From Syntrophaceae bacterium (GTDB lineage Bacteria > Desulfobacterota > Syntrophia > Syntrophales > Smithellaceae): 39,471 nt of DNA. Under the pieces are notes generated by a model that was not told the origin of the DNA, searched no databases, and was given only the letters and a program-made list of their open reading frames with translations. Both the position numbers and the translations under genes were made by a program. The stretch is taken from NCBI GenBank assembly GCA_016927935.1, contig JAFGLS010000209.1, forward strand, positions 1-39,471, read 5' to 3'. Shown here piece after piece: positions 4,339 through 22,861 of the stretch (its first letter is position 1; each line of letters begins with the position of its first letter).

Positions 4339-4359
4339 CAACTGATTAAGGAACAAATT

Positions 4360-7300
4360 ATGGCCATAACAAATTATGAACGTGTCGGAAAAGCATTGGA
4401 GCTTCTCAAAGATGGACTGATTCCATTTGTGGAAAGAGAGTTGAAAGCACAGCACTCACAGCAATGGATTGAAGTTGCCAAGACGTCAGTCAGCGATCCT
4501 CAAACAAAATTATTTGCAAAGAAAGATAAACCTCAGTGGGATATTGCCGCTATTTTATCGGTCATCTGGAACCAGTGGGATGTAGTTTTTCGCAAGACAC
4601 TGGGACGTTCCGAGCGCAGTTTTGTCAGTGAACTGCGGGAAGTGCGAAACAAATGGGCACATCAAAACCCCTTTTCGGGAGACGATGCCGATAGAGCTCT
4701 TGATTCTGCTGAAAGATTGTTGTCCGCGGTATCCGCACTTCAGGCCGAGGAAGTCAGAAAATTAAAAATGGAGCTTCGTCGAACAATCTATGATGAGCAG
4801 ATTCGCACAGAAAAACGAAAAGCCGCAAGCTCAGCTATTGAAAGCGCAACGGCAATAGACCTGAAACCATGGAGGGAAGTGGTCACTCCACACAAGGATG
4901 TGGCTAGTGGCCGTTACCAGCAGGCAGAATTCGCCGCCGATCTCTGGCAGGTACACTTAAATGAAGGCTCGGATGAATATCGCGATCCGTCTGAGTTTTT
5001 CCGGCGCACATATCTCACAGAGAGCCTTAAAGGGATGTTAGTCAATGCCGTGCGGAGACTTTCAGGTAAAAGCGGCGATCCTGTAGTTCAACTCCAAACA
5101 AATTTTGGTGGCGGTAAAACACATTCAATGATGGCACTGTATCATTTATTTTCCGGAATTTCTCCCACAGAGCTTTCCGGAATAGATGCAGTAATGAAAG
5201 CGGCTGGTGAAACAAAACTGCCTGAAGTCCGCCGTGTTGTGCTGGTGGGGAACAAAATATCTCCCGGCAATCCGGTAACAAAACCCGGTGGAAAAGTAAT
5301 TAAGACACTGTGGGGTGAACTCGCATGGCAACTGGGTTTTTCGGCAGGTGGCAACAAGGAAGCCAAAAAAGCGTTTGAACGAGTGGCTGCCGATGACGAA
5401 AAAGCAACGAGCCCGGGAGATGTTCTTCGGGAATTGTTCATAGAATATGGGCCTTGTCTGATTTTAATTGATGAATGGGTCGCCTATGCCCGTCAGTTGC
5501 ACGAACAAAGCGATCTACCAGCCGGAAGTTTTGAAACCCAATTTACCTTTGCCCAGGTTCTGACAGAATCGGCAAGACTCTCTAAAAACTGTCTTTTGGT
5601 AATCAGTCTTCCCGCTTCCGATGCCGGTCCTTCGCCGCACACACAAGCTGATGATGTAGAAGTGGGCGGTCAACGTGGCCGTGAAGCACTCGATAGATTG
5701 CGCAATGTTATTGGCCGAATTGAATCATCATGGCGTCCGGCAAGCGCGGAAGAAGGATTTGAAATTGTCCGACGCCGGTTATTCCAGCCAATGACCGATT
5801 CCGCTCAATTCAAAAATCGTGATGTGGTCGCCAGAGCTTTTGCTGATTTCTACAAAGCGCAGCAGGCCGATTTTCCTCCCGAATGCCGCGAAGCCGATTA
5901 TGAAAAAAGAATAAAGGCAGCCTATCCGATTCATCCGGAAATATTCGATAGACTCTATTCCGACTGGTCAACTTTAGTGAAATTTCAAAGGACACGCGGT
6001 GTTTTACGACTGATGGCAGCCGTTATCCATAGCCTATGGGAGAAGAACGACAAAAATCCACTTATTCTTCCAGCCAACATAGCAATAGATGATTTGCGGG
6101 TGCAGTCAGAATTGACACGCTATTTGTCAGATAATTGGGTGCCGATAATCGAAAAGGATGTCGATGGAGCAAGCTCCTTGCCATATAGATTGGATGGCGA
6201 ACTTCCCAATTTAGGGAAATTTGCTGCTTGCCGTCGAGTAGCCCGCACCATTTACCTGGGTTCAGCTCCTTTGACTACGGCTGCGCATAGAGGATTGGAA
6301 GACAGGCGGATAAAGCTTGGCTGTATGATGCCCGGTGAATCACCTTCTGTATTTGGCGATGCTTTAAGGCGCCTGGCTAGCTCTGCTACATATCTTTATC
6401 AGGATGGGCCAAGGTATTGGTACTCTACTCAACCGACGGTTTTAAAGTTGGCAGATGATCGAGCCGAACAGATTAAGCGCGACCCTGATAAAGTTGCTCA
6501 AGAAGTAGAAAAAAGGCTGCGAAAAGATTTGGAACGCAACGGAGACTTCAATCGCATACATCCCTTGCCACGTACAGGACAGGATGTGCCCGATGATATG
6601 GATGCGCGTTTGGTTGTTTTAGCAATTGATTATCCATACAGCAAAGAATCAGGTAACGAAGCAGAAAAAGCAGCAAAAGCAATTCTTGAGTCACGTGGGA
6701 CGACGCCTCGCATTTATCGCAATTCACTGGTGTTCTTAGCGGCTGATAAAACACGCCTACAGGATCTTGAAGATGCAATCTGTAAATACCTGGCATGGGA
6801 ATCCATAGTTGCTGAAAAGGTACAATTAAATCTCGACCCTCAACAGGTTAAGCAGGCAGAAAATCAGGAAGCAGCTAGTGATACAGCGGTGGCTGCGAGA
6901 ATACCGGAAACATATCAATGGCTGCTGGTTCCTGAACAAAAAACACCAAAAGATAAGATGACTTGGCAAGTGATACGATTATCAGGACAAGAGGCCTTGG
7001 CTGTCAGGGCAGGCAAGAAATTAAAAAGCGAAGAGTTGTTTATTACCAGTTTTGCGGCAACGAGATTACGCATGGAATTGGACAGAATACCTCTTTGGCG
7101 CGGCAATGATGTTTCAGTAAAACAACTTGCTGAAGATTTTGCGCGCTATTTTTATCTTCCGCGCCTAAAGGATTCATCCGTTCTTATTGCAGCTATCAGC
7201 AGTGGTGTAGCCCTCTTGACATGGGAACAAGATTCTTTCACTTTTGCCGATAGCTTTGATGAATCTGAAGATCGTTATCGTGGATTACGTGGCGGTCAAG

Positions 7301-7719
7301 GAATATTCTTAACAGATGTTGATTCACCGGGTCTTCTAGTAAAGCCGGGGGTTGCTATAAAACAAATTGATGCAGAAAGGGCAAAAGCCGCTGGTGAAAA
7401 AGAAAGGGATGGCGAAAAGGAACCGTCCACCACTGAAGAAGGACAGAAAAAAGAAGAGACTGATATAACTCCTAAGACAATACAACTAAAACGTTTTCAT
7501 GGAACGGCGGTCCTAGATCCTGCACGCGTCGGCCGCGATGCGGGACGAATTGCCGAGGAAGTAATTTCTCATCTTACAGGACAAGTGAATGCCAAAGTTA
7601 CCGTTACACTGGAAATAGAAGCAGAAATGCCATCAGGTGCTTCAGATAAAGTGGTGCGTACAGTAACTGAAAATTGCCGAACGCTAAAATTCACGAATCA
7701 TGGATTTGAGAAAGAATAA
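4360..7719 (+). CDS. DUF499 P-loop ATPase with N-terminal Swt1-like HEPN domain
   Basis: This 1119-residue protein is predicted to be the ATP-driven effector or sensor of the DUF1156 cassette. The N-terminal 120 residues look like a Swt1-type HEPN domain: an all-helical segment ending in R96-N-K-W-A-H101, which matches the R-N-x3-H signature of HEPN ribonucleases. The DUF499 ATPase follows, with Walker A G250-G-G-K-T254 and Walker B I-L-I-D371-E372-W. A glycine-poor alpha/beta region then runs to about residue 1000. Next comes a charged E/K-rich linker (about 1005-1035) and a C-terminal beta domain. An intact HEPN motif suggests RNA cleavage, but HEPN domains can also be purely structural. 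An SD-like AAGGAA lies eight bases ahead of the ATG. The gene shares a transcript with the methylase. Confidence 0.92.
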   Translation: MAITNYERVGKALELLKDGLIPFVERELKAQHSQQWIEVAKTSVSDPQTKLFAKKDKPQWDIAAILSVIWNQWDVVFRKTLGRSERSFVSELREVRNKWAHQNPFSGDDADRALDSAERLLSAVSALQAEEVRKLKMELRRTIYDEQIRTEKRKAASSAIESATAIDLKPWREVVTPHKDVASGRYQQAEFAADLWQVHLNEGSDEYRDPSEFFRRTYLTESLKGMLVNAVRRLSGKSGDPVVQLQTNFGGGKTHSMMALYHLFSGISPTELSGIDAVMKAAGETKLPEVRRVVLVGNKISPGNPVTKPGGKVIKTLWGELAWQLGFSAGGNKEAKKAFERVAADDEKATSPGDVLRELFIEYGPCLILIDEWVAYARQLHEQSDLPAGSFETQFTFAQVLTESARLSKNCLLVISLPASDAGPSPHTQADDVEVGGQRGREALDRLRNVIGRIESSWRPASAEEGFEIVRRRLFQPMTDSAQFKNRDVVARAFADFYKAQQADFPPECREADYEKRIKAAYPIHPEIFDRLYSDWSTLVKFQRTRGVLRLMAAVIHSLWEKNDKNPLILPANIAIDDLRVQSELTRYLSDNWVPIIEKDVDGASSLPYRLDGELPNLGKFAACRRVARTIYLGSAPLTTAAHRGLEDRRIKLGCMMPGESPSVFGDALRRLASSATYLYQDGPRYWYSTQPTVLKLADDRAEQIKRDPDKVAQEVEKRLRKDLERNGDFNRIHPLPRTGQDVPDDMDARLVVLAIDYPYSKESGNEAEKAAKAILESRGTTPRIYRNSLVFLAADKTRLQDLEDAICKYLAWESIVAEKVQLNLDPQQVKQAENQEAASDTAVAARIPETYQWLLVPEQKTPKDKMTWQVIRLSGQEALAVRAGKKLKSEELFITSFAATRLRMELDRIPLWRGNDVSVKQLAEDFARYFYLPRLKDSSVLIAAISSGVALLTWEQDSFTFADSFDESEDRYRGLRGGQGIFLTDVDSPGLLVKPGVAIKQIDAERAKAAGEKERDGEKEPSTTEEGQKKEETDITPKTIQLKRFHGTAVLDPARVGRDAGRIAEEVISHLTGQVNAKVTVTLEIEAEMPSGASDKVVRTVTENCRTLKFTNHGFEKE

Positions 7720-12336: not shown

Positions 12337-12666
12337 CATAAACTTTCAAGAATTTCAGAGGCCAAATTTAGAGAATTAGTGCAGTACTTTTCTCTTGATT
12401 TGGATGCTCATAAAATCACTTTTTAAACCGGTCTTAATCCCGATATAATATTGGGATTAACCGTTATTTGCTCTTGATCAGAAAAAGGATTGCCCAATAC
12501 TGTGAGCAATCATCTCCTTTTCAAGGAGAAATAGAAGTAGATGAATCATACTTTGGAGCCAAAAGAGTCAGAGGCAACCGCGGTCGAGGCGCTTGGAATA
12601 AAACCCCTGTCTTTGGCCTTCTCCAAAGAGGAGGCAAGGTCTATACGGAAATAGTTCCTGACTGTG
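12337..12666 (+). pseudogene. Truncated IS1595 (ISXO2-like) transposase remnant
   Basis: Two frames together give a recognisable IS1595-family transposase. Frame one (12337-12422) reads R-I-S-E-A-K-F-R-E-L-V-Q-Y-F and then closes at a stop. The second frame resumes near 12458 with I-N-R-Y-L-L-L-I-R and continues through E-I-E-V-D-E-S-Y-F-G-A-K-R, which contains the first catalytic aspartate region of the DDE/ISXO2 domain. Homology ends near I-V-P-D-C at about 12665, where a different sequence begins, so the C-terminal half and the other catalytic residues are absent. The frameshift and truncation make it inactive. It probably destroyed the DUF1156 gene that starts at 12194. Confidence 0.75.
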
Positions 12667-12765
12667 CCCGAGACAGCGTTTGGCTGCGCCAGAGTATTGT
12701 ATTGATCATAATCATAGGGAAACTTGATGTCTTCGTAACTTGCTTTAACCAGCAGGGCCCGCAAA
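12661..12765 (-). pseudogene. Fragment of a second ERCC4-type nuclease gene
   Basis: Read on the - strand, this segment encodes R-A-L-L-V-K-A-S-Y-E-D-I-K, then D-Y-D-Q-Y-N-T-L-A-Q-P-N-A-V-S-G-T. This corresponds to residues about 133-165 of the intact ERCC4 nuclease encoded at 13687-14322. The nucleotide match to 13845-13955 is clear but diverged, so it is an old paralogous copy and not a fresh duplication. One end abuts the IS1595 remnant; homology stops before the PD-(D/E)XK gene at 12797. Confidence 0.7.
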
Positions 12766-12796: not shown

Positions 12797-13606
12797 TTAT
12801 TTCATTTCTGATGATACCAGCAATTTCCATTTCCCTCTTGCCAATTCTGAAATTGCATCTTTTTTTGTAATAGAAATACTTTGCAGCTTTTCTACTTTCT
12901 GCTCTTCACAAATTTTTCCAAGCTTGTCTAAAAAATTCTCTTCCTTTAATGTAAGCGCCATTAATGAAATATTAGTACGGAACTCTCTACTTAAATCGTT
13001 TAAAGCTTTTTCCACTTTGCTGATTTTATCCTGCGCTTCTTCTGTTAAACCATAATCCTGATAATAAGACTGTGGTGCTAGAATAATCAGATTAATGTTC
13101 TCATAATGCTTACAGTCTTTATGGTGTGTGATTCCATTTTCATGTATTATTCTATATTCAATAAGATTTTTAAGACTCTCGACAATAGCATAGAGAGGAG
13201 AATTTGTGCTTGTCCACGGTTTCAGTTCAACAAATACAAATTTTGACTCATTTTCTTCAATTCCAATATCAACGGATTCTTTTTTCCCGCCGATGGGTAC
13301 CTGATTGTAGAACTTGCCAGAATTTGATGTCGTTATAAATCTTTCGAGGGCTTCTTCGGGTCTATATGCCTTTTTTTCAACTGTTACGGTGAAATTGTAT
13401 CTTTTTCTTTGATGTAATAGTTTATTGCCATTCGGTGGAAATTCATTAATAACTTCTCTGAGAATCCGGTGTAAATCACCGGGCATGAACCCCAGATTCC
13501 CATCCGCAAGAAATTTAAGCCAACCTTTTTTGTGAGATATAAGATTATATTTTTCCTTTTTTGCATTTAACCTTGAATTTACCCCCTTAATAATATCTTT
13601 TACCAT
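12797..13606 (-). CDS. PD-(D/E)XK nuclease-fold protein, last gene of the ClpP-AAA-nuclease cluster
   Basis: This 269-residue protein is preceded by a near-perfect AGGAGGT six bases ahead of its ATG, which fixes the start. Residues 95-132 carry the restriction-endonuclease-like core: S-V-D113-I-G-I, then F-V-F-V-E127-L-K129-P-W, the classical D...E-x-K active site. E85 on the helix before may be the fourth acidic residue. The N-terminal 90 residues are basic and could bind DNA, and the C-terminal half is helical. It follows the ERCC4 gene on the same strand after 80 bases. I do not recognise a named family. DNA or RNA cleavage is the likely activity, judged from the complete motif. Confidence 0.7.
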   Translation of the reverse strand: MVKDIIKGVNSRLNAKKEKYNLISHKKGWLKFLADGNLGFMPGDLHRILREVINEFPPNGNKLLHQRKRYNFTVTVEKKAYRPEEALERFITTSNSGKFYNQVPIGGKKESVDIGIEENESKFVFVELKPWTSTNSPLYAIVESLKNLIEYRIIHENGITHHKDCKHYENINLIILAPQSYYQDYGLTEEAQDKISKVEKALNDLSREFRTNISLMALTLKEENFLDKLGKICEEQKVEKLQSISITKKDAISELARGKWKLLVSSEMK

Positions 13607-13686
13607 GGTAACCTCCTAAAGACTTATTATATAATAATATCTCAGCTAATTTGTCGAACTTTTCATCATCGCTAACGTTGACATAA

Positions 13687-14322
13687 TTATAGATCTCCCT
13701 CCTGCAAAACACGGCCATATCCATTACTCTCCAGATACCAGTATGTAAAATGTTTGGATAGCCAGCTCGCGACTTTTTCTTCTGCCAATGGGCGATAACG
13801 TGATGTATAGATTATGGGGATGCCGAACCGTACTTCCAAAGCATCCAGTGTACCTGATACGGCGTTCGGATGAGCCAGTGTATTGTATTCCTCATAATCA
13901 TAGGGAGACTTTATGTCCTCATAACTTGCCTCAATTAATAGAGCTCTCCAACGGTACTTTGTCATTTTTTCGCATAATTTAAAAAATCTTGTCCGCTCCT
14001 GAATTACAGTTGTTATAAGATCGGTCAGCGTTTTTCTCTCCAAAACAAGCAGTGTCTCCATGCCCTCTATACTGTAATCCCCAACTTTCAGTGCTTGGCT
14101 TTTTGAATCAGCAATCCAGTTTTTGAATCTGCTAAAATCAAAAGGATATTTTTCACGGGTGTCAACGAGAATTACGGGTTTGGGAATCTGCCGGGTAATA
14201 CTGTGCCCGCTGCGCTTAACGATTAAACGACCGGTTGGCGGATCTGCCGGATGATATTCTCGTATGGATACATCAGAATCATAATAATCATCTTCTTCTA
14301 TTTCATTTTTAGATATGGTCAT
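13687..14322 (-). CDS. ERCC4-domain (XPF-type) nuclease
   Basis: This protein is predicted to be a structure-specific DNA endonuclease of the XPF/MUS81 type. I prefer the ATG at 14322 because GGGAGGT lies 11 bases ahead of it and overlaps the stop of the upstream gene; a longer frame starts at 14352 without a ribosome-binding site. The chosen protein has 211 residues. Counted from the longer start, the core reads V-D64-T-R-E-K-x-P-F, G91-D-Y-S-I-E-G, and L-E105-R-K107-T-L-T-D111-L: the GDX(n)ERKX3D nuclease signature complete. There is no C-terminal helix-hairpin-helix pair, so it would need a partner for DNA binding. Overlap with the metallo-hydrolase gene suggests coupled translation and shared function. 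A decayed paralogue lies at 12661-12765. Confidence 0.9.
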   Translation of the reverse strand: MTISKNEIEEDDYYDSDVSIREYHPADPPTGRLIVKRSGHSITRQIPKPVILVDTREKYPFDFSRFKNWIADSKSQALKVGDYSIEGMETLLVLERKTLTDLITTVIQERTRFFKLCEKMTKYRWRALLIEASYEDIKSPYDYEEYNTLAHPNAVSGTLDALEVRFGIPIIYTSRYRPLAEEKVASWLSKHFTYWYLESNGYGRVLQEGDL

Positions 14323-14329
14323 AAATAAC

Positions 14330-15571
14330 TCAAACCTCCCAATATTCTCCATCGGCGTGCATTTCTACGTTATCAAATAATTCTTTATATCTTTCCGGCA
14401 TAAAGGTATGTATTGGTACAAGTCTCTTTGCCGATATGGCACGAGCCATTGTTTGCAGGTCGGGTAAAGATGCATGACCGGATGTGTGGCAATGGAGAAT
14501 GGGAATCAGATGATTTTTAAGCCAATCCATGAACCATTGATATCGTTTGTCTTTTAAATAGCCCGGCCACAAGGAATAAATAAGTTTAGATCCCTCAAGG
14601 CATTCTGCCTTTTCTAAATCCTCAGTCATAGAGGGACGAAACAACATTACCGATGAATTTACCATGTCGGCTAATTTTTCGGGATATACACGGCAAGAAG
14701 CAACAGATAACGGGATATCGAAAAGCTCACGTTTCTTGATCAGTATTCGTTGAAACTGAGGAACGTAAACATAAAAATTCCTGAAGCCCGGCTGGGGCAG
14801 ATGGGGATTATTGATGGCTATCAGGATACTGGCAGTGTAAAGATCCACGATAAGCTTTTTGCCGCTTTTCCGGCATGCCCTATAAATGGTAACAATCCGA
14901 TCAATATTCTGGCCGGAAGTCCAGACGAGTGTCAAACCATTTGTCGAATTAAAATGTTCAATGAATTGAACCTCTAGTTCATCTTCCGAAGGGTATTCGT
15001 TTTCAGCACCTGTCCGGCCAAGTGTTGAACCTTCCATCAAGAGAACATCGACATCTTTGGGTGGTTTTTTGATCAACTTTTTAAACAGTTCCGCTTTTCT
15101 TCCATGCCCCCGAAAATCTCCGGAGTAGAAGACCTTCTTGCCATTGGCTTCTACCAGAAACGCATAAGCATCATAAGCCGAGTGATCAACCAGATATGGG
15201 ATGATGGTGAAAGGTCCCCTGGAAATCGGCTTTCTGTCCTTTAATTCAATGGTATCGTGGAAACCAGGGATGTCGGGGAAAAATTGTCTGGCGGCATTGA
15301 TTATCCTGACAGCTCCATCGCCAATCAGAACCGGGACTTTTTGCCGGAGCTTAGCCAAAAGACCATAGTGGTCAAGATGTGCGTGACTAATGGCTATTCC
15401 CAGCAATGACTCATCGGATTTTTCCAGACCGGAAACATCAGGCAGTGGAGTTTCGCTCTGTTCTGCATCCAACGGAAGACCAAGATCCAGCAAAAGCCTT
15501 TGACCTTTTTCTTCCATTTCAACGCAACTTCCGCCTATTTCTTTAGCGCCGCGGTGAATACATACCTGCAT
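14330..15571 (-). CDS. RNase J/beta-CASP-like metallo-beta-lactamase-fold hydrolase
   Basis: This 413-residue enzyme is predicted to hydrolyse phosphodiester bonds with two zinc ions. The start has AGGA six bases upstream. After the G-A-K-E-I-G-G-S-C opening strand, metal ligands appear as H63-A-H65-L-D67-H68, H130, and D152 in Y-S-G-D-F-R-G-H-G. They continue in the beta-CASP part with H362-T-S-G-H366-A-S and in the last strand with V-P-I-H388-T. This order is that of RNase J and of CPSF73-like nucleases, but the protein is shorter than RNase J (about 550 residues) and lacks its C-terminal dimerisation domain. It is therefore unlikely to be the housekeeping RNase J. It sits between a small unknown gene and the ERCC4 nuclease in a same-strand array. 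Confidence 0.88.
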   Translation of the reverse strand: MQVCIHRGAKEIGGSCVEMEEKGQRLLLDLGLPLDAEQSETPLPDVSGLEKSDESLLGIAISHAHLDHYGLLAKLRQKVPVLIGDGAVRIINAARQFFPDIPGFHDTIELKDRKPISRGPFTIIPYLVDHSAYDAYAFLVEANGKKVFYSGDFRGHGRKAELFKKLIKKPPKDVDVLLMEGSTLGRTGAENEYPSEDELEVQFIEHFNSTNGLTLVWTSGQNIDRIVTIYRACRKSGKKLIVDLYTASILIAINNPHLPQPGFRNFYVYVPQFQRILIKKRELFDIPLSVASCRVYPEKLADMVNSSVMLFRPSMTEDLEKAECLEGSKLIYSLWPGYLKDKRYQWFMDWLKNHLIPILHCHTSGHASLPDLQTMARAISAKRLVPIHTFMPERYKELFDNVEMHADGEYWEV

Positions 15572-15668
15572 TGGAAATCCTGTTTGTCTTGTTTATGTGC
15601 ATATTAGTATTTTGTACCTGTTCTTGCAATCTAATTAAACTATCAAAAGCTGTATGCATATAAATTCG

Positions 15669-16139
15669 TTAATCAATTTCAATTACGATCATAGGCCTTT
15701 TGGGCGATAATATAATCCTGTCCTTAAATGCTATCGGCTTCTTACCCTTTTCCTCCAGCCGGGCATTCCAGATTTGTCTGGCGATGACCTTGTATTCAGG
15801 TGCACCATAATGTTTCACCTTGTCATTTTCATCGTATAAGAAAAACCACCAGGCAAACTCTTCGGCTATTATTTTTTCCAAAGCATCGATAGTTTTCCAT
15901 TCGGATTGGCGCAGAAGGATGGTTTCCGCTTCAGGCTCATATTCATCCTCAGGCGCACCGCAACAGACAAGCCCTTGAGGATCGATTTCACCTAAAATAT
16001 CGACTATTTTATCAAGGAGCGCCTTATTGTTCTGCATTTGATCAATAATCCACTGATCATATATACTATCGTAAATCTCAGTCATTCTTCTGAAGAGATG
16101 TCTGATATGTTTTTGGAATCTTTCCCTATCTTTTATCAT
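15669..16139 (-). CDS. Small uncharacterised acidic protein in the ClpP-AAA-nuclease cluster
   Basis: This 156-residue protein has no membrane segment. An AAGGGG lies 13 bases ahead of the ATG, so translation may be weak. Around residues 54-68 it reads D-P-Q-G-L-V-C-C-G-A-P-E-D-E-Y, followed by alternating E-P-E-A-E. That resembles the D-P-x-G-L...G-A-P-x-D-E-Y pattern of small DUF1871-like proteins, a family of unknown function; the match is by eye and weak. The C-terminal 50 residues are basic and beta-prone. The gene lies 55 bases after the AAA+ ATPase gene and 97 bases ahead of the metallo-hydrolase gene on the same strand. It could be an adaptor, a substrate or an inhibitor of the protease; none of these is shown. 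Confidence 0.6.
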   Translation of the reverse strand: MIKDRERFQKHIRHLFRRMTEIYDSIYDQWIIDQMQNNKALLDKIVDILGEIDPQGLVCCGAPEDEYEPEAETILLRQSEWKTIDALEKIIAEEFAWWFFLYDENDKVKHYGAPEYKVIARQIWNARLEEKGKKPIAFKDRIILSPKRPMIVIEID

Positions 16140-16194
16140 AAAACATTTTACCCCTTTCAGATCAAATTTATTGCTTCAGAAAAGCATATTAAAA

Positions 16195-18480
16195 TCAAAC
16201 ATGATTTGCATTATCTGATTGTCCAAACAAAACTGGTTTTGGACGTTTTGAACAATAGCGGTCAATGACATTATTGATATCCCTTGCCGTTAGTTCACCA
16301 TAGTTGCCTTCTATGACTGATTGGATTTCCGCCTGTTGGACAAAATAATCTATTTCCACGATATGCATGGGATGATTTTTCACTAGCGATACCAGGTCAT
16401 TGTCACTGATTCTGTATTTGTCAAGATGTTTTCTCCATTGCATCATCTGCATCTCTTCATTCGGACATTCGATATTGAAATGAAGATGGAATTCTTTTGG
16501 TATTTTCCCGAGTGGCGGAAACGTAACCATGCAGAAAAGACCCTTATAATATCTCATATGATGGCGCAGATCAAAGCTCAGGAACATTCGCTCGAGGCTG
16601 ATATCGCGTTCCCGTGAATCATCCGTCCATGTTGCAATACGGTTGCAATCGACAAACATCAGCAGAAAAGCGTCGCCGGTGCTTTCCCCAAAGGCCAGTT
16701 CTATCGGATACTTTTTAGTCTGGGAAATAGGATCAAATACCATGCCGTAATCAACGGTATTTTTTTCATATAAATCAGTATAATCAAACTTTCTGATTTT
16801 CAGGTTACATTCGCCGGCCATCAATTCAACCGCGGCAATGCCCGTTTCAATGTCACTGGCAGTAATCAGTATGTTAAGTCCTGATTTCTTTTCCCGAAGG
16901 TTTTTATAAACATTTACGGCATTGCCCAGCTGGATTCTCTGCTCATTGTTGATTGGCAGATCGCTTCCCTTGCTTGCCGGAGCATAGACCTGATAGAGAG
17001 AATTCGTATCCGCCATTTGATGTAATTGCAGCTGTGCTGCCTTATCGATCATGTCCATGGTAATCAGCGATTTGTCCCTGCTTGCGGAAGTCAATGATGA
17101 AACCAAGGCCATGAAGATGCTGTTTTTGATAAGTCCGCCGGTAAAGTTGTAACGTTCTGCAAGCAGTTTTAAATCAACATCGGGAGCCAGTTTCACGAAA
17201 TCAGGCATTAACGCCTGCCATATCCTGTAACGCAGTTCGGCATCCGGGATACCGAAACAGACCTTCAGCGATAAACGGCGATCCATAGCAGGATCAAGAT
17301 TCACAGGCTGGTTTGTTGATAAAATGACAACGCAGCGGGCTTTTTCAATTTCGATCAGAAGTAGGCGCGATAACCAGCTGTTCTTAATAAAAAAATCATC
17401 AGCTTCGTCAAAATATACAATTCCTGAATTCAAGGAGGCCTCCAGAAATAATTTTTTGATACTGTCATCAACTATAATTATACCATCGCATTCTGATTTG
17501 TTGGACTTGAGTGAATAAAGAGGTTTGTTGAAATGATTGGCGAGAGCCTGAGCCATCATGGTTTTTCCCGTTCCTGAAGGACCATGGAAAAGCAGTGTAA
17601 GAGCAGTACCGTAGCCGTAAAAATCATCAAGCATCTTTGCTTCCTTGCTTTCCCGGCATGCCAGGTAGTTGCCGATGCGCGAAACAAGCTCTGTTTTTAT
17701 TTGATCCGGCACTATAACCTGGTCTAAATGGACTGAACCTTCATCGCGTTGAATCATCCTGGAAGTATTTTTGTAAAGATTATTATCTCCTACCATGTAT
17801 CGCACGTATCTGTCATTGAGGCTTACGTATTTTTCAAAAATGGTGGTCTTGTCGTCATCACAGAAATCAATCTGCAGAATTTCCTGCCGGATGAGGGGCG
17901 ATTCCGTGCTGAAGTTTTTGCGGCTGACAAGCTGCTCTCTGTATTCACTGCAGATAACGTTAATGATGGTTGCTATCTTGACGGCACTTCCTTTCCTTGC
18001 GTCATCACCGAAAGCGCACAGATCGAACATTTTTGCGAATCTCTCGTTGGTTGACAGCAGGAGTAGCAATAAAACCAAAGTCCTGTTAAACTCCTCAACC
18101 TTTTTTTCACGGCAGAACTTTGTAAAATAAATCATGATGCCTTTTTGTTCCGCCATTTCGGCTCCCTTACGGTTTTTCTGCTCAATCAGTGAAATCAGGT
18201 CTGCCACTATTTCCGGCTTGCTTTCCAGGGGCGAAAGTCCTGCCATCGACATCGCCTGCACATAATTGGAATTGCCCTGCCAGTCCGGTCCATGCTGTCT
18301 TAACAGGGCGTATGCCAGAATGAGCCTTCCTTCCTGTTCCATGGCCTGTAAATAATCCAAGTTGTCAGAAAACGACGGTTCGGAACTTTTCTGTTCGCAG
18401 TATTTGGCCATGGATACTAATTTCCCCGCCTGTGCCGTGGCACTTTGATTCGTGTTCATGGTTGACATTGATTCGTTCAT
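16195..18480 (-). CDS. AAA+ ATPase with degenerate second AAA-like module, partner of a ClpP-like protease
   Basis: This 761-residue protein starts six bases after AAGGAGGA, which itself overlaps the stop of the ClpP-like gene. Residues 1-285 are helical and carry two similar L-x-Y-x-Q-A-M segments (43-47 and 73-77), perhaps a repeat used for substrate binding. The active AAA+ core has Walker A G300-P-S-G-T-G-K-T307, Walker B I-V-Y-F-D358-E359-A-D, sensor-1 S-T-N (388-390) and an arginine-finger-like D400-R-R. Residues about 530-740 look like a second AAA-like module: the strands N-I-L-I-T-A and L-L-M-F-V-D are present but no P-loop. No I-G-F/L-G-F loop, the ClpP-docking tripeptide of ClpX/ClpA, is visible. 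Unfolding of proteins for the adjacent protease is the natural reading, from context. Confidence 0.85.
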   Translation of the reverse strand: MNESMSTMNTNQSATAQAGKLVSMAKYCEQKSSEPSFSDNLDYLQAMEQEGRLILAYALLRQHGPDWQGNSNYVQAMSMAGLSPLESKPEIVADLISLIEQKNRKGAEMAEQKGIMIYFTKFCREKKVEEFNRTLVLLLLLLSTNERFAKMFDLCAFGDDARKGSAVKIATIINVICSEYREQLVSRKNFSTESPLIRQEILQIDFCDDDKTTIFEKYVSLNDRYVRYMVGDNNLYKNTSRMIQRDEGSVHLDQVIVPDQIKTELVSRIGNYLACRESKEAKMLDDFYGYGTALTLLFHGPSGTGKTMMAQALANHFNKPLYSLKSNKSECDGIIIVDDSIKKLFLEASLNSGIVYFDEADDFFIKNSWLSRLLLIEIEKARCVVILSTNQPVNLDPAMDRRLSLKVCFGIPDAELRYRIWQALMPDFVKLAPDVDLKLLAERYNFTGGLIKNSIFMALVSSLTSASRDKSLITMDMIDKAAQLQLHQMADTNSLYQVYAPASKGSDLPINNEQRIQLGNAVNVYKNLREKKSGLNILITASDIETGIAAVELMAGECNLKIRKFDYTDLYEKNTVDYGMVFDPISQTKKYPIELAFGESTGDAFLLMFVDCNRIATWTDDSRERDISLERMFLSFDLRHHMRYYKGLFCMVTFPPLGKIPKEFHLHFNIECPNEEMQMMQWRKHLDKYRISDNDLVSLVKNHPMHIVEIDYFVQQAEIQSVIEGNYGELTARDINNVIDRYCSKRPKPVLFGQSDNANHV

Positions 18481-18492
18481 GACTGTTCCTCC

Positions 18493-19056
18493 TTATGCCT
18501 TTTTCCTTGCCGGTTCTACGACATCGGCAAGACCATACTGCACCGTCTCTTCCGGTGTAAGCCACGTATCCACATCCCGCAGAAGGTAATTTTCCAGTTC
18601 CGCTCGGTCCTTGATTTTGGAATACGTTAGATAATGGAGGACAACACGTTCGTGCATCATGTCTTCCTCTTTTCTTCCGGCAATGAGCTGACTGTGGCTG
18701 CCCATATTCATTGCAGTGAAACGGTGCGAGAGCACGGACGTCCGGGGGGTTATTACCCTGTGCCCGCTTTCCCCGGTCATGAAGATCAGCAGTCCCATGG
18801 AGGCAATCATTCCGAGACCGGTGGTGTATATCGGAATCCGCGACCATTCCATGATGTCAATGATGGAAAATCCGGCGGAGCATATGCCTCCGGGGGAATT
18901 GATAATCAGCTGCATCTGGCTTACATTTCTCTTGATGTTGTGCTCGATGATTTCCTTGCATATTGATTCGGCACTGGTAATATTAATCTCGCCGGATAAA
19001 TAGATGATTCCGTATTCGGCCAATGCCTTTTCATCACGTTTTGTTTCTTCCGTCAT
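18493..19056 (-). CDS. ClpP-like serine protease, defence-cluster paralogue
   Basis: The start is set at 19056 because AGGAGGG lies seven bases ahead; the longer frame from 19116 has no site. The protein has 187 residues, close to mature ClpP length. The ClpP/crotonase fold is evident: I-I-N-S-P-G-G strand and oxyanion loop, nucleophile G-M-I-A-S86-M-G, histidine L-S-H111-R-F-T, and acid D163-T-W-L-T-P-E-E ahead of Y-G-L-A-D. All three catalytic residues are therefore present. It lacks the long N-terminal propeptide. It is probably not the housekeeping ClpP, because it is 12 bases ahead of a non-Clp AAA+ gene and behind a WYL regulator, and no clpX or tig gene is near. It should form a barrel that degrades proteins fed by the ATPase. 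Confidence 0.92.
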   Translation of the reverse strand: MTEETKRDEKALAEYGIIYLSGEINITSAESICKEIIEHNIKRNVSQMQLIINSPGGICSAGFSIIDIMEWSRIPIYTTGLGMIASMGLLIFMTGESGHRVITPRTSVLSHRFTAMNMGSHSQLIAGRKEEDMMHERVVLHYLTYSKIKDRAELENYLLRDVDTWLTPEETVQYGLADVVEPARKKA

Positions 19057-19106
19057 GGTGTTTCCCTCCTTTATTTTAATATGATTTGGGAACAGGTTAT
19101 CATGTG

Positions 19107-19129
19107 ATCGTTCCATATAAGGGAACGAT
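19107..19129. promoter_or_regulatory. Palindromic operator-like site ahead of the ClpP-like gene
   Basis: ATCGTTCC and GGAACGAT form perfect eight-base arms around a seven-base AT-rich spacer (ATATAAG). The centre lies about 60 bases upstream of the ClpP-like start and the spacer contains a -10-like TATA segment on the - strand. The site would suit a dimeric repressor, most simply the WYL protein encoded upstream. The link to that regulator is inference. Confidence 0.5.
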
Positions 19130-19219
19130 TGTATTATTTTTTATTTAAAAGGATTATTTACAATAATTGAATTATTACAGATATTTGGAATGACGCTATC
19201 GTGTCTCTATCCGTTTATG

Positions 19220-19372
19220 TGTCATTTCGAGAAGTCCTGATGAATCGGGACGACGAGAAATCTTATTTTTATGTTTTAAGATTCCTCTTCGTTGCGCTCA
19301 TCGGAATGACAGCAAAAAACAGGAGCGTAGCATTCTAATGTCATTTCGAGAAACGGAGGTACGAGAAATCTT
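19220..19372. repeat. Three units of a dispersed palindromic repeat (GTCATTTCGAG...GAGAAATCTT)
   Basis: Units at 19220-19263 and 19339-19372 run TGTCATTTCGAG to GAGAAATCTT. A third, at 19278-19311, is in inverse orientation (AAGATTCCTC to CGGAATGACA). Pairs can fold into long hairpins. They fill the gap between the WYL gene and the protease operon. Related units lie at 25102-25163 and 29602-29650. Confidence 0.7.
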
Positions 19373-19475
19373 TTATTACATTATTACATCATAGGCTTTC
19401 CCGGATCATTGAAAATTCGAAATGTCAATCCGAATTTTCAATGATGTAAAAGTCCGTTTGATTGGCGTACTGCCT

Positions 19476-20480
19476 TTACGAGTAGCAACAGGACAATTTT
19501 TTTATTCTTGATTTTAGCTCCTTGACCAGCCACTCTGGCTTAATCAGAGTTGCATCCTCGCCAAAGGAAAGCAGCCAGCTGGTAAGTTCCGGTTCGGAAG
19601 AAGCCTTGAATTTCAGGACGATCTTGTCTTTGCCTTTTTTGGTGATTTGCTGGTCGGGGCTCCAGATTCTCTCTGCCACATAGGAAGCTGCCCAACCAGA
19701 AAAGGCCACTTCCACATCAAATACTTCATCCTTGATGACACCGAATTGTTGGTTGAATGCTTTTTCGAAATCAAACTTGTCAGGCTCAAATTTAATGTCC
19801 GTCATCTCGACGGCTTTCATTCTATGAACAGCAAGGAGAGGATCAAACTTCGGGGCACGGTAGGGTTTCCCCGGTTCTTTTGCTTTTTGAGCGTGGAGGT
19901 AAATGGCATCGTGATAAGAAAATAATTTCAGAGGCTTTATGTGAAAGGTTTTCGGATGCGATGCTTCAATGGCCTGATAAGTCAACTTGCATACTTTTTG
20001 TTTTTCCATCGCCTCTATCAGAGTGTGGAAGATCTGATGCTGCGGCGTATAATCAATTGTGCCGGGACGGAAAGAGGTAAAGTGACATTCCCCTATCTGC
20101 TGGCCTCCCGCGAGGGCGGCCTTGCTTTTAAAGATAGCCTGTGTCGCTTCCTCATAGAGTTTTTTACCCACCAGATACTGTGTGAATGACTTGCACATAA
20201 GCAGGGATTGCAGTTCCGCCTCGGTCAGGGGGATACAGGCCAGGGATGCCACTGGCTTTCTTATCCGGTAGTAGCTCCTGTTGCCCTGTTTGGTCTCCTC
20301 AATATTGATTCCGTAGGACATCCTGATATTATTGAGAAGCCGCAAGACAGTCTGCTTGGAACAGCTCAGCATCTGGGCTAGTTCCGTCAAGGAATGATTC
20401 TCCCCGGAAAAAAGCAGATGGGCGAATAGGCCGATCAGTTTTTCCCCGTAGCTTTTATAAAGATCAAACTTTTCAGGCAT
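19476..20480 (-). CDS. HTH-WYL domain transcriptional regulator
   Basis: This 334-residue protein carries an N-terminal winged helix-turn-helix (about residues 12-60; L-A-Q-M-L-S-C-S-K-Q-T-V-L-R-L-L is the recognition part). A helical linker leads to the WYL domain (about 145-215) and a C-terminal WCX-like extension (about 245-330). The WYL tripeptide position reads Y-L-H, with basic residues nearby that could bind a nucleic acid or nucleotide ligand. An AAGGA precedes the ATG by a few bases. WYL regulators commonly control phage-defence islands and respond to single-stranded DNA or nucleotides. Here the gene stands first in a - strand array of seven genes and is divergent from the UDG-like operon, so it may control both. 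The protein's binding site is unproven; a palindrome at 19107-19129 is the best candidate. Confidence 0.9.
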   Translation of the reverse strand: MPEKFDLYKSYGEKLIGLFAHLLFSGENHSLTELAQMLSCSKQTVLRLLNNIRMSYGINIEETKQGNRSYYRIRKPVASLACIPLTEAELQSLLMCKSFTQYLVGKKLYEEATQAIFKSKAALAGGQQIGECHFTSFRPGTIDYTPQHQIFHTLIEAMEKQKVCKLTYQAIEASHPKTFHIKPLKLFSYHDAIYLHAQKAKEPGKPYRAPKFDPLLAVHRMKAVEMTDIKFEPDKFDFEKAFNQQFGVIKDEVFDVEVAFSGWAASYVAERIWSPDQQITKKGKDKIVLKFKASSEPELTSWLLSFGEDATLIKPEWLVKELKSRIKKLSCCYS

Positions 20481-20642: not shown

Positions 20643-20704
20643 ATTTCTACGATGCAAGTAGGAGTGTTACTTCTGAATACTTTTTTAACTTTGGAGGAAT
20701 GAAC

Positions 20705-21325
20705 ATGCCGAAACCTATTTTCAGACCATGGAAGCCTGGACATTTCAACGGTACGCTGATTATTGGTGAAAGTTGTCCCAAGGGAGATGAAACGGCCGGC
20801 AAGACGGGTTGGAAAGATCATCCAGACTCAGAATGGCCTTACAAATTTATTGTAAATCATGTGAAAATCAATGGATATCTGGATAAAGATACTTTTAAGA
20901 TTTTACGTCTCAGTTTTCTATATGATGGAAAAGAGCTAGACCCCAAGGAATTCTGGCAGCAACATGCATTCACCAACTTGGTACCTCGACTCATGGACCG
21001 TGATGTAAACAATAAGATTAAACGGCCAAATAATGGTAAAGACAAATGGGATGCACGCGAACAGTTCCCTTTGATAATAGAATATGTCAAACCTAAGCGT
21101 GTCCTAATTGCCAGTGGTTGGGGTGTCGAGAGTCTCAAAGAACTTTTCGATGACAAAAAATATTATTCCCCTTTCAAATCAAAAGGGGATATTTGGAAAA
21201 TGACATATAAGGGTATTCCCATGGTAGGCATCTATCATCCGATGTATCGTGCCTACACAAAAGATACTTTTATTGCTACAGCTAGAAAGGCAACTGAATT
21301 GCTTCAGAATATCTCAATAGAATAA
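20705..21325 (+). CDS. Uracil-DNA-glycosylase-superfamily-like protein
   Basis: I choose the ATG at 20705, seven bases after GGAGG; an ATG at 20699 lies only one base after that site. The protein has 206 residues. The pattern is that of the UDG superfamily: a strand-loop F-N-G-T-L-I-I-G-E-S near the start, an F-T-N-L-V-P-R motif (about 89-95), a V-L-I-A-S-G-W-G-V strand and a late G-I-Y-H-P-M-Y-R-A loop with the conserved histidine-proline. The catalytic aspartate or glutamate of classical UDGs is not obvious; E16 in motif I is a candidate. The protein may excise modified bases from DNA, or may only bind them. It heads a three-gene set with DUF2779 and Pif1-like genes, all DNA-acting, divergent from the WYL gene. 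The family assignment is distant. Confidence 0.55.
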   Translation: MPKPIFRPWKPGHFNGTLIIGESCPKGDETAGKTGWKDHPDSEWPYKFIVNHVKINGYLDKDTFKILRLSFLYDGKELDPKEFWQQHAFTNLVPRLMDRDVNNKIKRPNNGKDKWDAREQFPLIIEYVKPKRVLIASGWGVESLKELFDDKKYYSPFKSKGDIWKMTYKGIPMVGIYHPMYRAYTKDTFIATARKATELLQNISIE

Positions 21326-21391: not shown

Positions 21392-22861
21392 ATGAAAATC
21401 AAGCTATCCAAAACAAAATATCTTAACGGTTTACAATGTAAAAAATTGCTTTGGTACATCTATAACGAACCGGAAGCCATCCCAGAACCTGATGAGGCTA
21501 CTCAAGCAATATTTGATCAAGGGCATGAAGTTGGGGACTATGCAAAGAAATTATTTCCAGAAGGTGTTGAGGTTGATCACAGCGGATCATTTGAAGCAGG
21601 ACTGCAATCAACCAAAGAATTGATCTCAAAAAGAGTGCCGATATTTGAAGCTGCGTTAACATATAAGCGTTGTTATGCAAGAGCGGATATACTGGAACCT
21701 GTTGGCAAAGATAAATGGAACTTGATTGAAGTTAAAAGTTCCACAGAAATAAAAGATGTTCATTATGACGATATTGGTTTTCAATACTATGTTTATACCG
21801 GAGCTGGGCTAAAAATAGATAAATGTTATCTAATGTGCATTGATAATACCTATATCCGCAAGGGCGATATAGATCCCAATAAATTATTTAAGAAAATTGA
21901 TATTACCGACGAAATTAAGACATCATATAGTAAAACAACTGAAGATAATGTGGCGGAAATGGTCAAAGCCATAGCTGCCAAAACATTTATCGAAATTGGC
22001 GTCGGTGCACACTGCAATGATCCATACGATTGCCCGTTAATAGAAAAGTGCTGGTCATTCCTGCCCGAGAGAAACGTGTTTCTGCTTTACAGCAATAAGA
22101 AGCTTCCCTCTGTTTTGATTAAAAAAGGCATTCTTGAATTGGCCAAAATACCTGAAGAGTACAAACTTAACGAAAAGAATAAGATCCAAGTTGATTGTGA
22201 GCGAACGGGGAAACCATATATTGATCGCGATAAGATAAAGGAGTTCCTCAATTTAATAAAATATCCTGCTTATTATATGGATTTTGAGACGTGCGGGTCA
22301 GCCATTCCTTTATTTGACGGTTCCAGTCCTTACCAGCAGATACCGTTTCAGTTTTCAGTGCATGTGGTTAAAGAAAAAGGAGCAAAAACGGAACATTTTT
22401 CATTTCTGGCAGATGGAACGAATGATCCCCGTCCTGAGTTTATGTCAAAACTAAAAGAAGTTATGGGCACAAAAGGTTCTGTAATTGCCTATAATGCTGG
22501 TTTTGAAATGGGCATTCTTAAAAAATGTGCGGAAGTATTACCAAAATATAAAAAATGGGTGGAATCTATTGAAGAAAGGATGATCGATTTACTGCGACCT
22601 TTTAGAGATTTTGCTTATTATCATCCAAAGCAGAACGGCAGTTGCTCAATTAAGGATGTATTACCGGTACTAACAGATAAATCCTATGATGATCTGGAAA
22701 TTGGCGATGGAATTACCGCCAGCAAAGAATATGTCCGTGTTACATTTACAGAGGATAATCAAGATAAGGATAAAGTCAGAAATCTGCTGGAAGAATATTG
22801 CGGCCAAGATACTATGGGCATGGTGGATATAGTAGATAAATTATACAGTTTTACAAAATGA
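21392..22861 (+). CDS. DUF2779 protein: RecB-like PD-(D/E)XK nuclease plus RNase H-like exonuclease
   Basis: This 489-residue protein has two nuclease-type domains. The N-terminal one (about 1-200) is RecB-like: S-K-T-K-Y-L-N-G-L-Q-C-K-K-L-L-W at the start, A-R-A-D99-I-L, then L-I-E113-V-K115-S-S and a Q-Y-Y-V-Y helix. A Cys cluster may follow in this region (H-C-N-D-P-Y-D-C, then E-K-C), which is usual for iron-sulfur RecB-like nucleases. The second part (about 290-480) is DUF2779, a DEDD-type exonuclease fold with Y-Y-M-D297-F-E299-T, A-Y-N-A-G-F-E and a final Y-C-G-Q-D-T-M. The start has no strong ribosome site. The gene lies 66 bases after the UDG-like gene and 12 bases ahead of the Pif1-like gene. 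DNA end processing is the likely role. Confidence 0.88.
   Translation: MKIKLSKTKYLNGLQCKKLLWYIYNEPEAIPEPDEATQAIFDQGHEVGDYAKKLFPEGVEVDHSGSFEAGLQSTKELISKRVPIFEAALTYKRCYARADILEPVGKDKWNLIEVKSSTEIKDVHYDDIGFQYYVYTGAGLKIDKCYLMCIDNTYIRKGDIDPNKLFKKIDITDEIKTSYSKTTEDNVAEMVKAIAAKTFIEIGVGAHCNDPYDCPLIEKCWSFLPERNVFLLYSNKKLPSVLIKKGILELAKIPEEYKLNEKNKIQVDCERTGKPYIDRDKIKEFLNLIKYPAYYMDFETCGSAIPLFDGSSPYQQIPFQFSVHVVKEKGAKTEHFSFLADGTNDPRPEFMSKLKEVMGTKGSVIAYNAGFEMGILKKCAEVLPKYKKWVESIEERMIDLLRPFRDFAYYHPKQNGSCSIKDVLPVLTDKSYDDLEIGDGITASKEYVRVTFTEDNQDKDKVRNLLEEYCGQDTMGMVDIVDKLYSFTK

What the first reader, a model, noticed from the sequence alone, without database searches (positions are those of the whole stretch)
12797..20480. 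Candidate new system: WYL regulator, ClpP-like protease, AAA+ ATPase, metallo-hydrolase, ERCC4 and PD-(D/E)XK nucleases
Seven genes in a row on one strand join a protein-destruction pair to three different nucleases, under a WYL regulator of the kind that controls phage-defence loci. The protease and ATPase are 12 bases apart with the ribosome site inside the stop; the metallo-hydrolase and ERCC4 genes are equally tight. All catalytic residues look intact. I cannot match this gene set to a named defence system. A simple model is that the protease-ATPase destroys an inhibitor or a phage protein and so releases the nucleases. The families are established; the joint function is inference.
Basis: partly seen in the sequence, partly recalled or inferred. 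Interest (0 to 1): 0.88.

Follow-up and report, generated by a model that had tools for sequence, protein, structure and literature searches.

The report
Phage-like ClpP with Cdc48-type unfoldase
A bacterial gene cluster pairs a protein-shredding enzyme resembling ones found in large phages with a Cdc48-type motor protein instead of the usual Clp motor, inside swappable loci rich in DNA-cutting enzymes, which suggests an undescribed, protease-based anti-virus system.

Summary
The seven genes are present as described, but they are not a fixed set. The recurring unit is ClpP plus the AAA+ ATPase: 34 of 37 loci with this ClpP also have the AAA; the other three hold truncated or interrupted ClpP regions. 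WYL is in 23 of 38 loci and a Cas4-like/exonuclease protein (DUF2779; window 21392-22861) in 12. The MBL, 156-aa and this PD-(D/E)XK gene occur with the pair only here, ERCC4 in 7 of 38 loci; other members carry other nucleases. Four findings stand out. (1) The ATPase is Cdc48/p97-type, not a Clp/Hsp100 unfoldase. (2) It ends in a conserved, apparently disordered tail with LFG (28 of 31 complete C-termini), where proteasomal ATPases carry HbYX. (3) The ClpP keeps its triad but differs at recalled docking-pocket positions, and groups with ClpPs of large phages, not housekeeping ClpP. (4) In the host family a similar WYL-DUF2779 frame also holds other cores without ClpP. Flanks are enriched in defence-gene matches. 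Best reading: a dedicated Cdc48-ClpP protease as one exchangeable core of a modular anti-invader locus. Docking and defence function are inferred, not shown.

The parts
18493..19116 (-). Specialised ClpP peptidase (lineage shared with phage ClpPs); probable true start about 19056
   Evidence: Pfam CLP_protease 2.6e-29; triad in 24 of 24; clade with phage ClpPs, SH-aLRT/UFBoot 98.5/98
16195..18480 (-). Cdc48/p97-type tandem AAA: helical/winged-helix N part, D1 with Walker A (300-307), Walker B and Arg finger, D2 AAA-like without Walker A, low-confidence C-terminal tail
   Evidence: Pfam WHD and AAA; AlphaFold2 pLDDT 79, pTM 0.47; Foldseek best p97/Rix7/NVL, TM-scores 0.25-0.53; phmmer best Cdc48-type
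16222..16230 (-). LFG tripeptide (residues 751-753) in the C-terminal tail, candidate ClpP-docking motif
   Evidence: LFG near the end in 28 of 31 complete C-termini, 0 of 8 control AAAs; tail 745-761 pLDDT below 50
19476..20480 (-). WYL/WCX transcription regulator
   Evidence: Pfam WYL, WCX; WYL in 23 of 38 loci
21392..22861 (+).
   Evidence: Pfam DUF2779 7e-44; weak Cas4 match; 12 of 38 loci; domain reading from PMC3985635 passages
13687..14352 (-). ERCC4 nuclease; frequent partner in the host family
   Evidence: Pfam ERCC4 5.8e-14; orthologues 78-83% identical in the loci of G040, G016, G028, G047, G009
14330..15571 (-). MBL / beta-CASP (RNase J-like) hydrolase; inserted module, not core
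   Evidence: with the pair in 1 of 38 loci; family in 12 of 98 relatives at 1e-40
15669..16139 (-). 156-aa protein, function unknown; with the pair only here
   Evidence: no Pfam/NCBIfam hit; 1 of 38 loci
12797..13606 (-). Putative PD-(D/E)XK nuclease, motif only
   Evidence: D..ELK motif; in 98 genomes one other relative, G030, 61%, also just downstream of ERCC4
12663..12743 (-). Partial copy of ERCC4, scar of rearrangement
   Evidence: 81 bp at 83% identity
12468..12770 (+). IS1595-type transposase fragment at the 3' end of the cluster
   Evidence: Pfam DDE_Tnp_IS1595 1.3e-8
20699..21325 (+). 208-aa protein between WYL and DUF2779; by eye like the uracil-DNA-glycosylase superfamily, no family hit
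   Evidence: no Pfam hit; UDG hits to other proteins near the core, weak in L085 and L097, 4e-8 in L095

Best explanation
The core is a dedicated two-part protease. A Cdc48/p97-type tandem AAA ring unfolds a target chosen by its fast-changing N-terminal domain and threads it into a specialised ClpP barrel of a lineage shared with large phages. The two rings dock through flexible C-terminal LFG tails, the way archaeal Cdc48 and PAN dock on the 20S proteasome, instead of through the internal IGF loops of ClpX/ClpA. A WYL regulator controls the locus, and a Cas4-like/exonuclease protein (DUF2779) plus exchangeable nucleases (ERCC4, HD, REase-ARP, PDDEXK_4, MBL and others) supply the nucleic-acid arm. 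The protease most likely removes or dismantles invader (or invader-bound) proteins while the nucleases destroy the nucleic acid. Shown here: gene content and linkage, catalytic motifs, fold class, tail conservation, changes at recalled pocket positions, ClpP affinity, module exchange. Inferred: oligomeric rings, the docking mode, the target, and defence as the function.
For: AAA beside ClpP in 34 of 37 ClpP loci; the three others are truncated or interrupted. Cdc48-type matches over both AAA domains. LFG in the last 11 residues of 28 of 31 complete C-termini although mean column identity is 44%, in a low-confidence tail after the last lid helix; absent from 8 control AAA relatives. ClpP triad 24 of 24, while recalled H-pocket positions 60 (Q) and 82 (W) are fixed in 24 of 24 and seen in 0 of 17 phage relatives and 0 of 4 housekeeping ClpPs. 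Window against L067/L077: WYL 76-80%, ERCC4 82-83%, DUF2779 78-80%, but AAA 39-40%, with N domain 30-32% and D1 50%. Of 13 loci with 5 kb or more on both sides, WYL in 11 and DUF2779 in 8. 103 flank ORFs hit 110 PADLOC models at 1e-15 against 2 for 103 control ORFs.
Against: No experiment shows docking, proteolysis or phage resistance. pTM 0.47 and Foldseek TM-scores of 0.25-0.53 mean that domain packing is uncertain. FG near the end also occurs in other AAA proteins (such as ..EGDFG..), so LFG could serve ring assembly. L026 carries a second AAA (AAA2) directly before ClpP without LFG, and L097 ends in LF. The nucleases also occur without ClpP-AAA, so protease and nucleases need not work together. 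PADLOC hits are counted per model, not per protein.
Confidence: 0.5

Rival explanations
1. Hot spot of independent modules: ClpP-AAA is a complete stand-alone system, and WYL, DUF2779, ERCC4, HD, MBL and the other nucleases are separate defence genes sharing a frame and perhaps a regulator, without a joint mechanism.
For: ERCC4, HD, PD-(D/E)XK, DUF2779 and MBL all occur without ClpP-AAA; a similar frame holds AAA2 or a DnaA-like protein instead; HD also sits with AAA2 (L143) and ARPP-1 (L130); a repeat scar and a transposase fragment lie beside the window cluster.
Against: WYL or DUF2779 is present in 11 of 13 well-flanked loci, which include other families and phyla, more than passive neighbours would be expected to give; HD occurs in 5 loci of one AAA lineage and in none of the other two-locus lineage.
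Confidence: 0.25
2. Safety device, like ClpXP restriction alleviation: the protease degrades the nucleases when they act on host DNA, and so prevents self-damage.
For: Known precedent: ClpXP acts on HsdR of EcoKI (PMC4231737, PMC11109961; starts of abstracts seen in the listing). Nucleases lie next to the pair.
Against: The same nuclease families sit in sister loci without ClpP-AAA, so they do not need it.
Confidence: 0.15
3. One reading: on infection the protease destroys an inhibitor (or antitoxin) and thereby releases the nucleases.
For: Small unknown proteins follow AAA in several loci (156 aa here; F7 in 4 and F12 in 2 of 38).
Against: No small protein was found conserved with the nucleases; the small proteins change from locus to locus.
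Confidence: 0.1

Closest known systems
Archaeal Cdc48 (VAT) or PAN with the 20S proteasome
   Same: Cdc48 is a tandem AAA of this class; hydrophobic-aromatic motif in the C-terminal tail (HbYX there, LFG here); barrel protease partner
   Different: Peptidase is ClpP (serine, SDH triad), not a 20S proteasome; the tail carries Phe, often with 1-8 residues after the motif; the locus carries nucleases and WYL
ClpXP / ClpAP
   Same: ClpP with SDH triad, AAA+ partner
   Different: AAA is Cdc48-type and not Hsp100; no conserved internal [LIV]-G-[FL] loop (6 of 23 at the best column); different residues at recalled H-pocket positions
IetAS anti-phage pair
   Same: AAA ATPase and serine protease pair; best PADLOC and NCBIfam hit of the ATPase is IetA
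   Different: Protease is ClpP, not the subtilisin-like IetS (recalled); the IetA match lies far below the cut-off (60 against 510 bits)
ClpP of T4-like and jumbo phages
   Same: Nearest ClpP relatives found (mean 36% identity, up to 45%; housekeeping mean 26%)
   Different: No full-length AAA partner adjacent in the phage loci read; W82 and Q60 not present
Conflict systems with Clp-like protease domains (PMC7159879, 'System 4')
   Same: Clp-like proteases have been noted before among the domains of a bacterial conflict system (passage)
   Different: A membrane-associated two-gene system; the passage names no Cdc48-type partner, WYL or DUF2779

Membership tests
Canonical Clp protease (ClpXP/ClpAP) | ClpP fold with Ser-His-Asp triad | tested here: met
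   24 of 24 sequences; Pfam
Canonical Clp protease (ClpXP/ClpAP) | Hsp100/Clp-class ATPase partner | tested here: not met
   Pfam, phmmer and Foldseek give AAA / Cdc48/p97/Rix7 class first; ClpX models only weakly (1e-3)
Canonical Clp protease (ClpXP/ClpAP) | Internal (L/I/V)-G-(F/L) docking loop in the ATPase | tested here: not met
   Best column 6 of 23; LFG at the C-terminus instead
Cdc48 / proteasomal ATPase with C-terminal docking tail | Tandem AAA of p97 class | tested here: met
   (D2 lacks Walker A; TM-scores low)
Cdc48 / proteasomal ATPase with C-terminal docking tail | C-terminal HbYX (penultimate Tyr) | tested here: not met
   LFG (Phe), at or up to 8 residues from the end
Cdc48 / proteasomal ATPase with C-terminal docking tail | Tail physically docks on the peptidase | not testable with these tools
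   needs pull-down or cryo-EM
IetAS | IetA ATPase above family cut-off | tested here: not met
   60 bits against 510
IetAS | Subtilisin-like protease IetS adjacent | tested here: not met
   the adjacent protease is ClpP
Named anti-phage systems in PADLOC 2023 | Core genes match models of one system | tested here: not met
   for the seven genes and three right-hand neighbours, hits are WYL, partial IetA/TRIP13 and Cas4/RecD-like models and weaker ones; none for ClpP, MBL, ERCC4 or the 269-aa protein
Anti-phage defence system | Lies in defence-rich surroundings | tested here: met
   110 against 2 models at 1e-15, 103 ORFs each; HmaB/HmaC in the window
Anti-phage defence system | Protects against phage | not testable with these tools
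   needs plaque assays

The most novel reading that the evidence does not exclude
A bacterial Cdc48-ClpP protease: a ClpP lineage shared with large phages was coupled to a p97-type tandem ATPase through C-terminal LFG tails and a remodelled pocket, and now forms one exchangeable core of a WYL-DUF2779-framed family of nuclease-rich defence loci. In sister loci a related two-P-loop ATPase without its own ClpP (AAA2) ends in IGF and would dock on the housekeeping ClpP by the same C-terminal trick, so C-terminal Clp tags turn general AAA motors into ClpP partners.
Probability: 0.4. Interest if true: 0.9.

Novelty: new variant of a known kind. Interest (0 to 1): 0.74.

Why it matters
As far as I recall, ClpP's known partners are Hsp100-class ATPases with internal IGF-type loops, while Cdc48-type motors dock on 20S proteasomes. 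A ClpP coupled to a Cdc48-type motor by a C-terminal tail would show that the two great families of compartmental protease can be recombined, would give a simple test (remove three residues), and would add a dedicated barrel protease to the means of anti-phage defence. The ClpP's affinity with large-phage ClpPs also hints at host capture of a phage protein. The modular WYL-DUF2779 frame gives a handle for finding further cores.

Tried and rejected
Rejected: (a) the seven genes as one system. (b) A known named system: PADLOC, NCBIfam and Pfam gave none. (c) eCIS association: of the 9 places that match only by an AAA domain I read the flanks of 6 (L061-L066); three look like tail-sheath clusters by eye (L063, L065, L066), none has a ClpP match and none ends in LFG (L061 ends in IGF). 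(d) Proven phage origin of the ClpP: in the best tree it nests among phage ClpPs (with viral L159 100/100), but a tree with all phage ClpPs as one clade is not rejected (AU p 0.24). (e) The MBL as part of the core: in plasmids and relatives it sits with other proteins. (f) The first viral scan, with the single AAA protein, found no relative; the second, with the ClpP alignment, found 23 loci.

Weak points of my own tests: the ClpP tree has only 4 housekeeping sequences (E. coli plus 3; 8 of 11 further loci gave none by my motif filter) and 17 phage ones (15 of the 23 viral loci plus two named phages). Of 246 flank ORFs I sampled 110 and gave 103 to PADLOC; the 103 control ORFs come from 11 of 12 stretches taken from 6 same-family genomes, while the flank ORFs come from many families. 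Only the first 25 of the 110 models were shown, and the number of proteins hit is not known. The 34 loci were found through two short peptide patterns, so distant members are missed. I used 38 distinct loci (window, L026, L032, L060, L067-L100), dropping L010, L027-L031, L033, L058 and L059 as repeats of loci among L067-L100. One of the 8 tail controls is AAA2 of L026, which lies directly before ClpP.
Full report
What is there. The window is contig C29 of a draft genome. ClpP searches with organism names place the closest relatives in Smithella/Syntrophaceae. The seven - strand genes are real, with the expected motifs. To their left lie HmaB and HmaC of the Hma system (E=0), a PARG-type macro protein and an HNH protein; to the right a 208-aa protein, DUF2779 and a PIF1 helicase.

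Which genes belong together. Full-length or contig-cut AAA relatives occur in 10 of 51 genomes of the host family. In a draw of 395 genomes of the phylum, 13 matched at 1e-30; in five of them the match was this AAA with the same ClpP next to it (one cut by the contig end), and the other eight matched only by an AAA domain. A scan of the genome collection (84,980 species) with the ClpP alignment gave 34 loci: Smithella/Syntrophaceae, Geobacteraceae and other Desulfuromonadales, Desulfobulbaceae and Desulfocapsa, records labelled only Deltaproteobacteria, and single cases in Tharpella, Dependentiae, Gemmatimonadaceae, Nitrospiraceae and CSSED10-310. Across 38 distinct loci ClpP was found in 37 and AAA in 35. 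Of the 37 ClpP loci 34 have AAA; L090 has a transposase and a contig end after ClpP, and L099 and L100 hold only part of ClpP. By protein families WYL is in 23 of 38, DUF2779 in 12, ERCC4 in 7 (in L076 about 8 kb from the pair), an HD protein in 5. Many contigs are short: of 13 loci with at least 5 kb on both sides, 11 have WYL and 8 DUF2779. The window's MBL, 156-aa and PD-(D/E)XK genes were found in no other of the 38 loci (tblastn 1e-6).

The variable slot. Near AAA other members carry other genes: HD (L077, and by family L067, L073, L075, L032), REase-ARP PD-(D/E)XK nucleases (L077, L075, and by family L067, L032), PDDEXK_4 (L072, L081), a family with a D..E[LF]K motif by eye (F8; L074, L078, L082, L085), Nmad2 (L093), RtcB with a release-factor-like protein (L071), a WD40 protein (L080). 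In the host family the frame itself holds other cores. WYL of the window's type (74-87% identity) with DUF2779 (71-83%) also occurs without this AAA: with AAA2 in G021 and G017, a DnaA-like protein and a weak PDDEXK_4 match in G010, and a DUF6946/REase protein in a second G009 locus, where a 48-residue ClpP-like remnant (50%, 1e-4) is left. ERCC4 with the window-type PD-(D/E)XK, HD and ARPP-1 sits in G030 beside a different WYL protein. ERCC4 orthologues (E below 1e-80) are in 9 of 51 family genomes, 3 of them (G005, G015, G030) without AAA. The MBL family (1e-40) is in 12 of 98 relatives, mostly elsewhere; in G009 it sits two genes from DUF2779, and in G040 about 6 kb from ERCC4.

The ATPase. 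AlphaFold2 (23 sequences; mean pLDDT 79, pTM 0.47) gives a helical/winged-helix N part, an AAA domain with its motifs, a second AAA-like domain without Walker A, and a tail with pLDDT below 50 from residue 745. Foldseek's best matches, over some 540-630 columns, are p97/Cdc48, Rix7 and NVL (E down to 5e-19), though TM-scores are only 0.25-0.53, so the packing of the domains is not fixed; phmmer against PDB sequences agrees. It is therefore of the Cdc48 class and not of the Clp/Hsp100 class. Of 31 AAA-family ORFs with a complete C-terminus, 28 have LFG within the last 11 residues, four of them ending exactly in LFG (L060, L095, L096, L098). The three without are AAA2 of L026, the N-terminal half of a frameshifted gene whose C-terminal half has LFG, and L097, which ends in LF. 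A further ORF, L086, is cut short by a transposase and was not counted, being under 300 aa. Eight control relatives have no LFG tail: seven with no ClpP match nearby and AAA2 of L026, which lies directly before ClpP. No internal (L/I/V)-G-(F/L) loop is conserved (6 of 23 at the best column). Clp ATPases bind ClpP's hydrophobic pockets by that tripeptide (PMC8745299, passages), and proteasomal ATPases by a C-terminal HbYX tail (PMC5476697, passages), which p97/Cdc48 also carries (PMC11475706, passages). The simplest inference is that LFG is a C-terminal ClpP-docking tail. An alternative is a role in ring assembly, since other AAA proteins also have FG near the end.

AAA2. This related ATPase has two P-loops. 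No ClpP match lies in the stretches read around it (18 kb and 14 kb in L142 and L143, 4-8 kb in L144-L147 and L149), except in L026, which has both. In 8 of 8 members with a complete end (two from one genome), IGF or FGF stands 0-6 residues from the C-terminus; a more distant AAA, L061, also ends in IGF. IGF is the ClpX tripeptide, so AAA2 may recruit housekeeping ClpP. This is a lead, not a test.

The ClpP. It is a second ClpP: in the host genus 13 of 17 genomes gave a hit to E. coli ClpP at 1e-10, 12 of them housekeeping copies (57-65% identical); G016 and G009 hold both kinds, the specialised one being about 30% identical. The window's own draft gave only the specialised copy, probably through incompleteness. 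The triad is kept in 24 of 24. At positions I recall as the H-pocket, residue 60 is Q and residue 82 is W in 24 of 24 (0 of 17 phage and 0 of 4 housekeeping ClpPs); 114 is T in 24 of 24 (12 of 17 phage), 189 is E in 22 of 24, and a 6-residue gap in helix A is shared with most phage ClpPs. Position 60 also varies among the 4 housekeeping sequences. Phage ClpPs found by the viral scan (23 loci) have no full-length AAA partner beside them; L165 has a 303-aa protein with a weak AAA match (27%, 4e-6) two genes upstream, without LFG. They are the nearest relatives found: mean identity 36% against 26% for housekeeping. In the tree, specialised plus phage ClpPs form a clade against housekeeping (98.5/98), the specialised ones get 94/78, and specialised plus viral L159 100/100, but a separate phage clade is not rejected (AU p 0.24). 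A review of jumbo phages notes ClpP in some of them among proteases that may be deployed against the host (PMC7824862, passages).

Uneven evolution. Between the window and L077, WYL is 80%, ERCC4 82%, DUF2779 78% and ClpP 71% identical, but AAA only 40%, with 32% in the N domain and 50% in D1. Two AAA lineages (window, L026 against the other eight) sit in overlapping frames; across them the N domain is 27-33% and D1 47-51% identical, leaving out the fragment L068. Against a simple picture, the DUF2779 of L026 is of another type (34-38%) and WYL comes in two types (26-31% between them). HD follows AAA directly or one gene later in 5 loci of the second lineage and in neither locus of the first; L092 of the second lineage lacks it, and two contigs end in AAA. 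I read this as diversification of target choice, linked to exchange of cargo.

Defence context. 103 flank ORFs (of 246; AAA, ClpP, WYL and DUF2779 families excluded) matched 110 PADLOC models at 1e-15, among the 25 shown DrmD, ZacB, DpdE, ZorD and a type I methylase; 103 control ORFs matched 2. Several models can hit one protein, so this shows enrichment without giving its size.

Literature. Searches of the open full-text library for ClpP with WYL, AAA, phage defence and DUF2779, HbYX with ClpP, ClpP-like with defense island, DUF2779, ClpP with anti-phage terms, REase/ClpP/conflict system, Cdc48 with ClpP and HbYX, restriction alleviation and ClpP with WYL domain listed no paper whose title or abstract start describes this pair; only the top rows are shown for large result sets, I read passages of seven papers and no whole text, and subscription papers are mostly missing. 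One of them mentions Clp-like proteases among the domains of another conflict system (PMC7159879, passage). DUF2779 is classed as a presumed 3'-5' exonuclease with a DUF83 part resembling PD-(D/E)XK nucleases (PMC3985635, passages).

Mechanism and verdict. Committed reading: the WYL protein switches the locus; the Cdc48-type ring selects and unfolds a target and feeds it to its own ClpP; DUF2779 and the exchangeable nucleases act on nucleic acid. Because the nucleases also occur without the protease, I favour a parallel proteolytic arm over a safety or release role, at about even confidence. Interest is high because the docking idea can be tested by removing three residues.

Noticed in passing
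window 29-7719: HmaB and HmaC of the Hma defence system (PADLOC E=0); the gene before them (29-1453) has no family hit and the contig begins there.
   Followed up: no
L142:11343-13559, L143:4858-7048, L026:5767-8025, L144-L147, L149: AAA2: Cdc48-like ATPases with two P-loops whose C-termini carry IGF/FGF, the canonical Clp tripeptide, mostly without a ClpP nearby.
   Followed up: partly
L159-L181: Viral contigs encode ClpPs nearest to the specialised one; L159 carries two ClpP-like genes and is the sister of the bacterial clade in the tree.
   Followed up: partly
L139:2825-2968: A ClpP-like remnant (48 residues, 50%, 1e-4) next to an REase gene in a WYL-DUF2779 locus of G009, suggesting that a core was replaced.
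   Followed up: no
L022, L023, L024, L122-L129, L131: The RNase J-like MBL is found on Rhizobium, Ochrobactrum and Cereibacter plasmids and in family relatives; in L124, L126, L127, L128 it lies near a PHP/DnaE-like gene by eye.
   Followed up: partly
L026:11085-11519, L070, L072, L078: A small unknown protein (F7, EPYG motif) follows AAA in four loci and also precedes the MBL on Rhizobium and Ochrobactrum plasmids.
   Followed up: no
L071:13118-14858: RtcB RNA ligase and a release-factor-like (PrfH-like, recalled) protein after ClpP-AAA, a possible RNA-repair cargo.
   Followed up: no
L085:17116-17892, L097:15258-15986, L095:5110-5847, window 20699-21325: Proteins with uracil-DNA-glycosylase matches (weak in L085 and L097, 4e-8 in L095, none for the window one) recur near DUF2779 or the core.
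   Followed up: partly
L098:10508-14967: ClpP-AAA followed directly by a second AAA protein, open at the end of the stretch.
   Followed up: no
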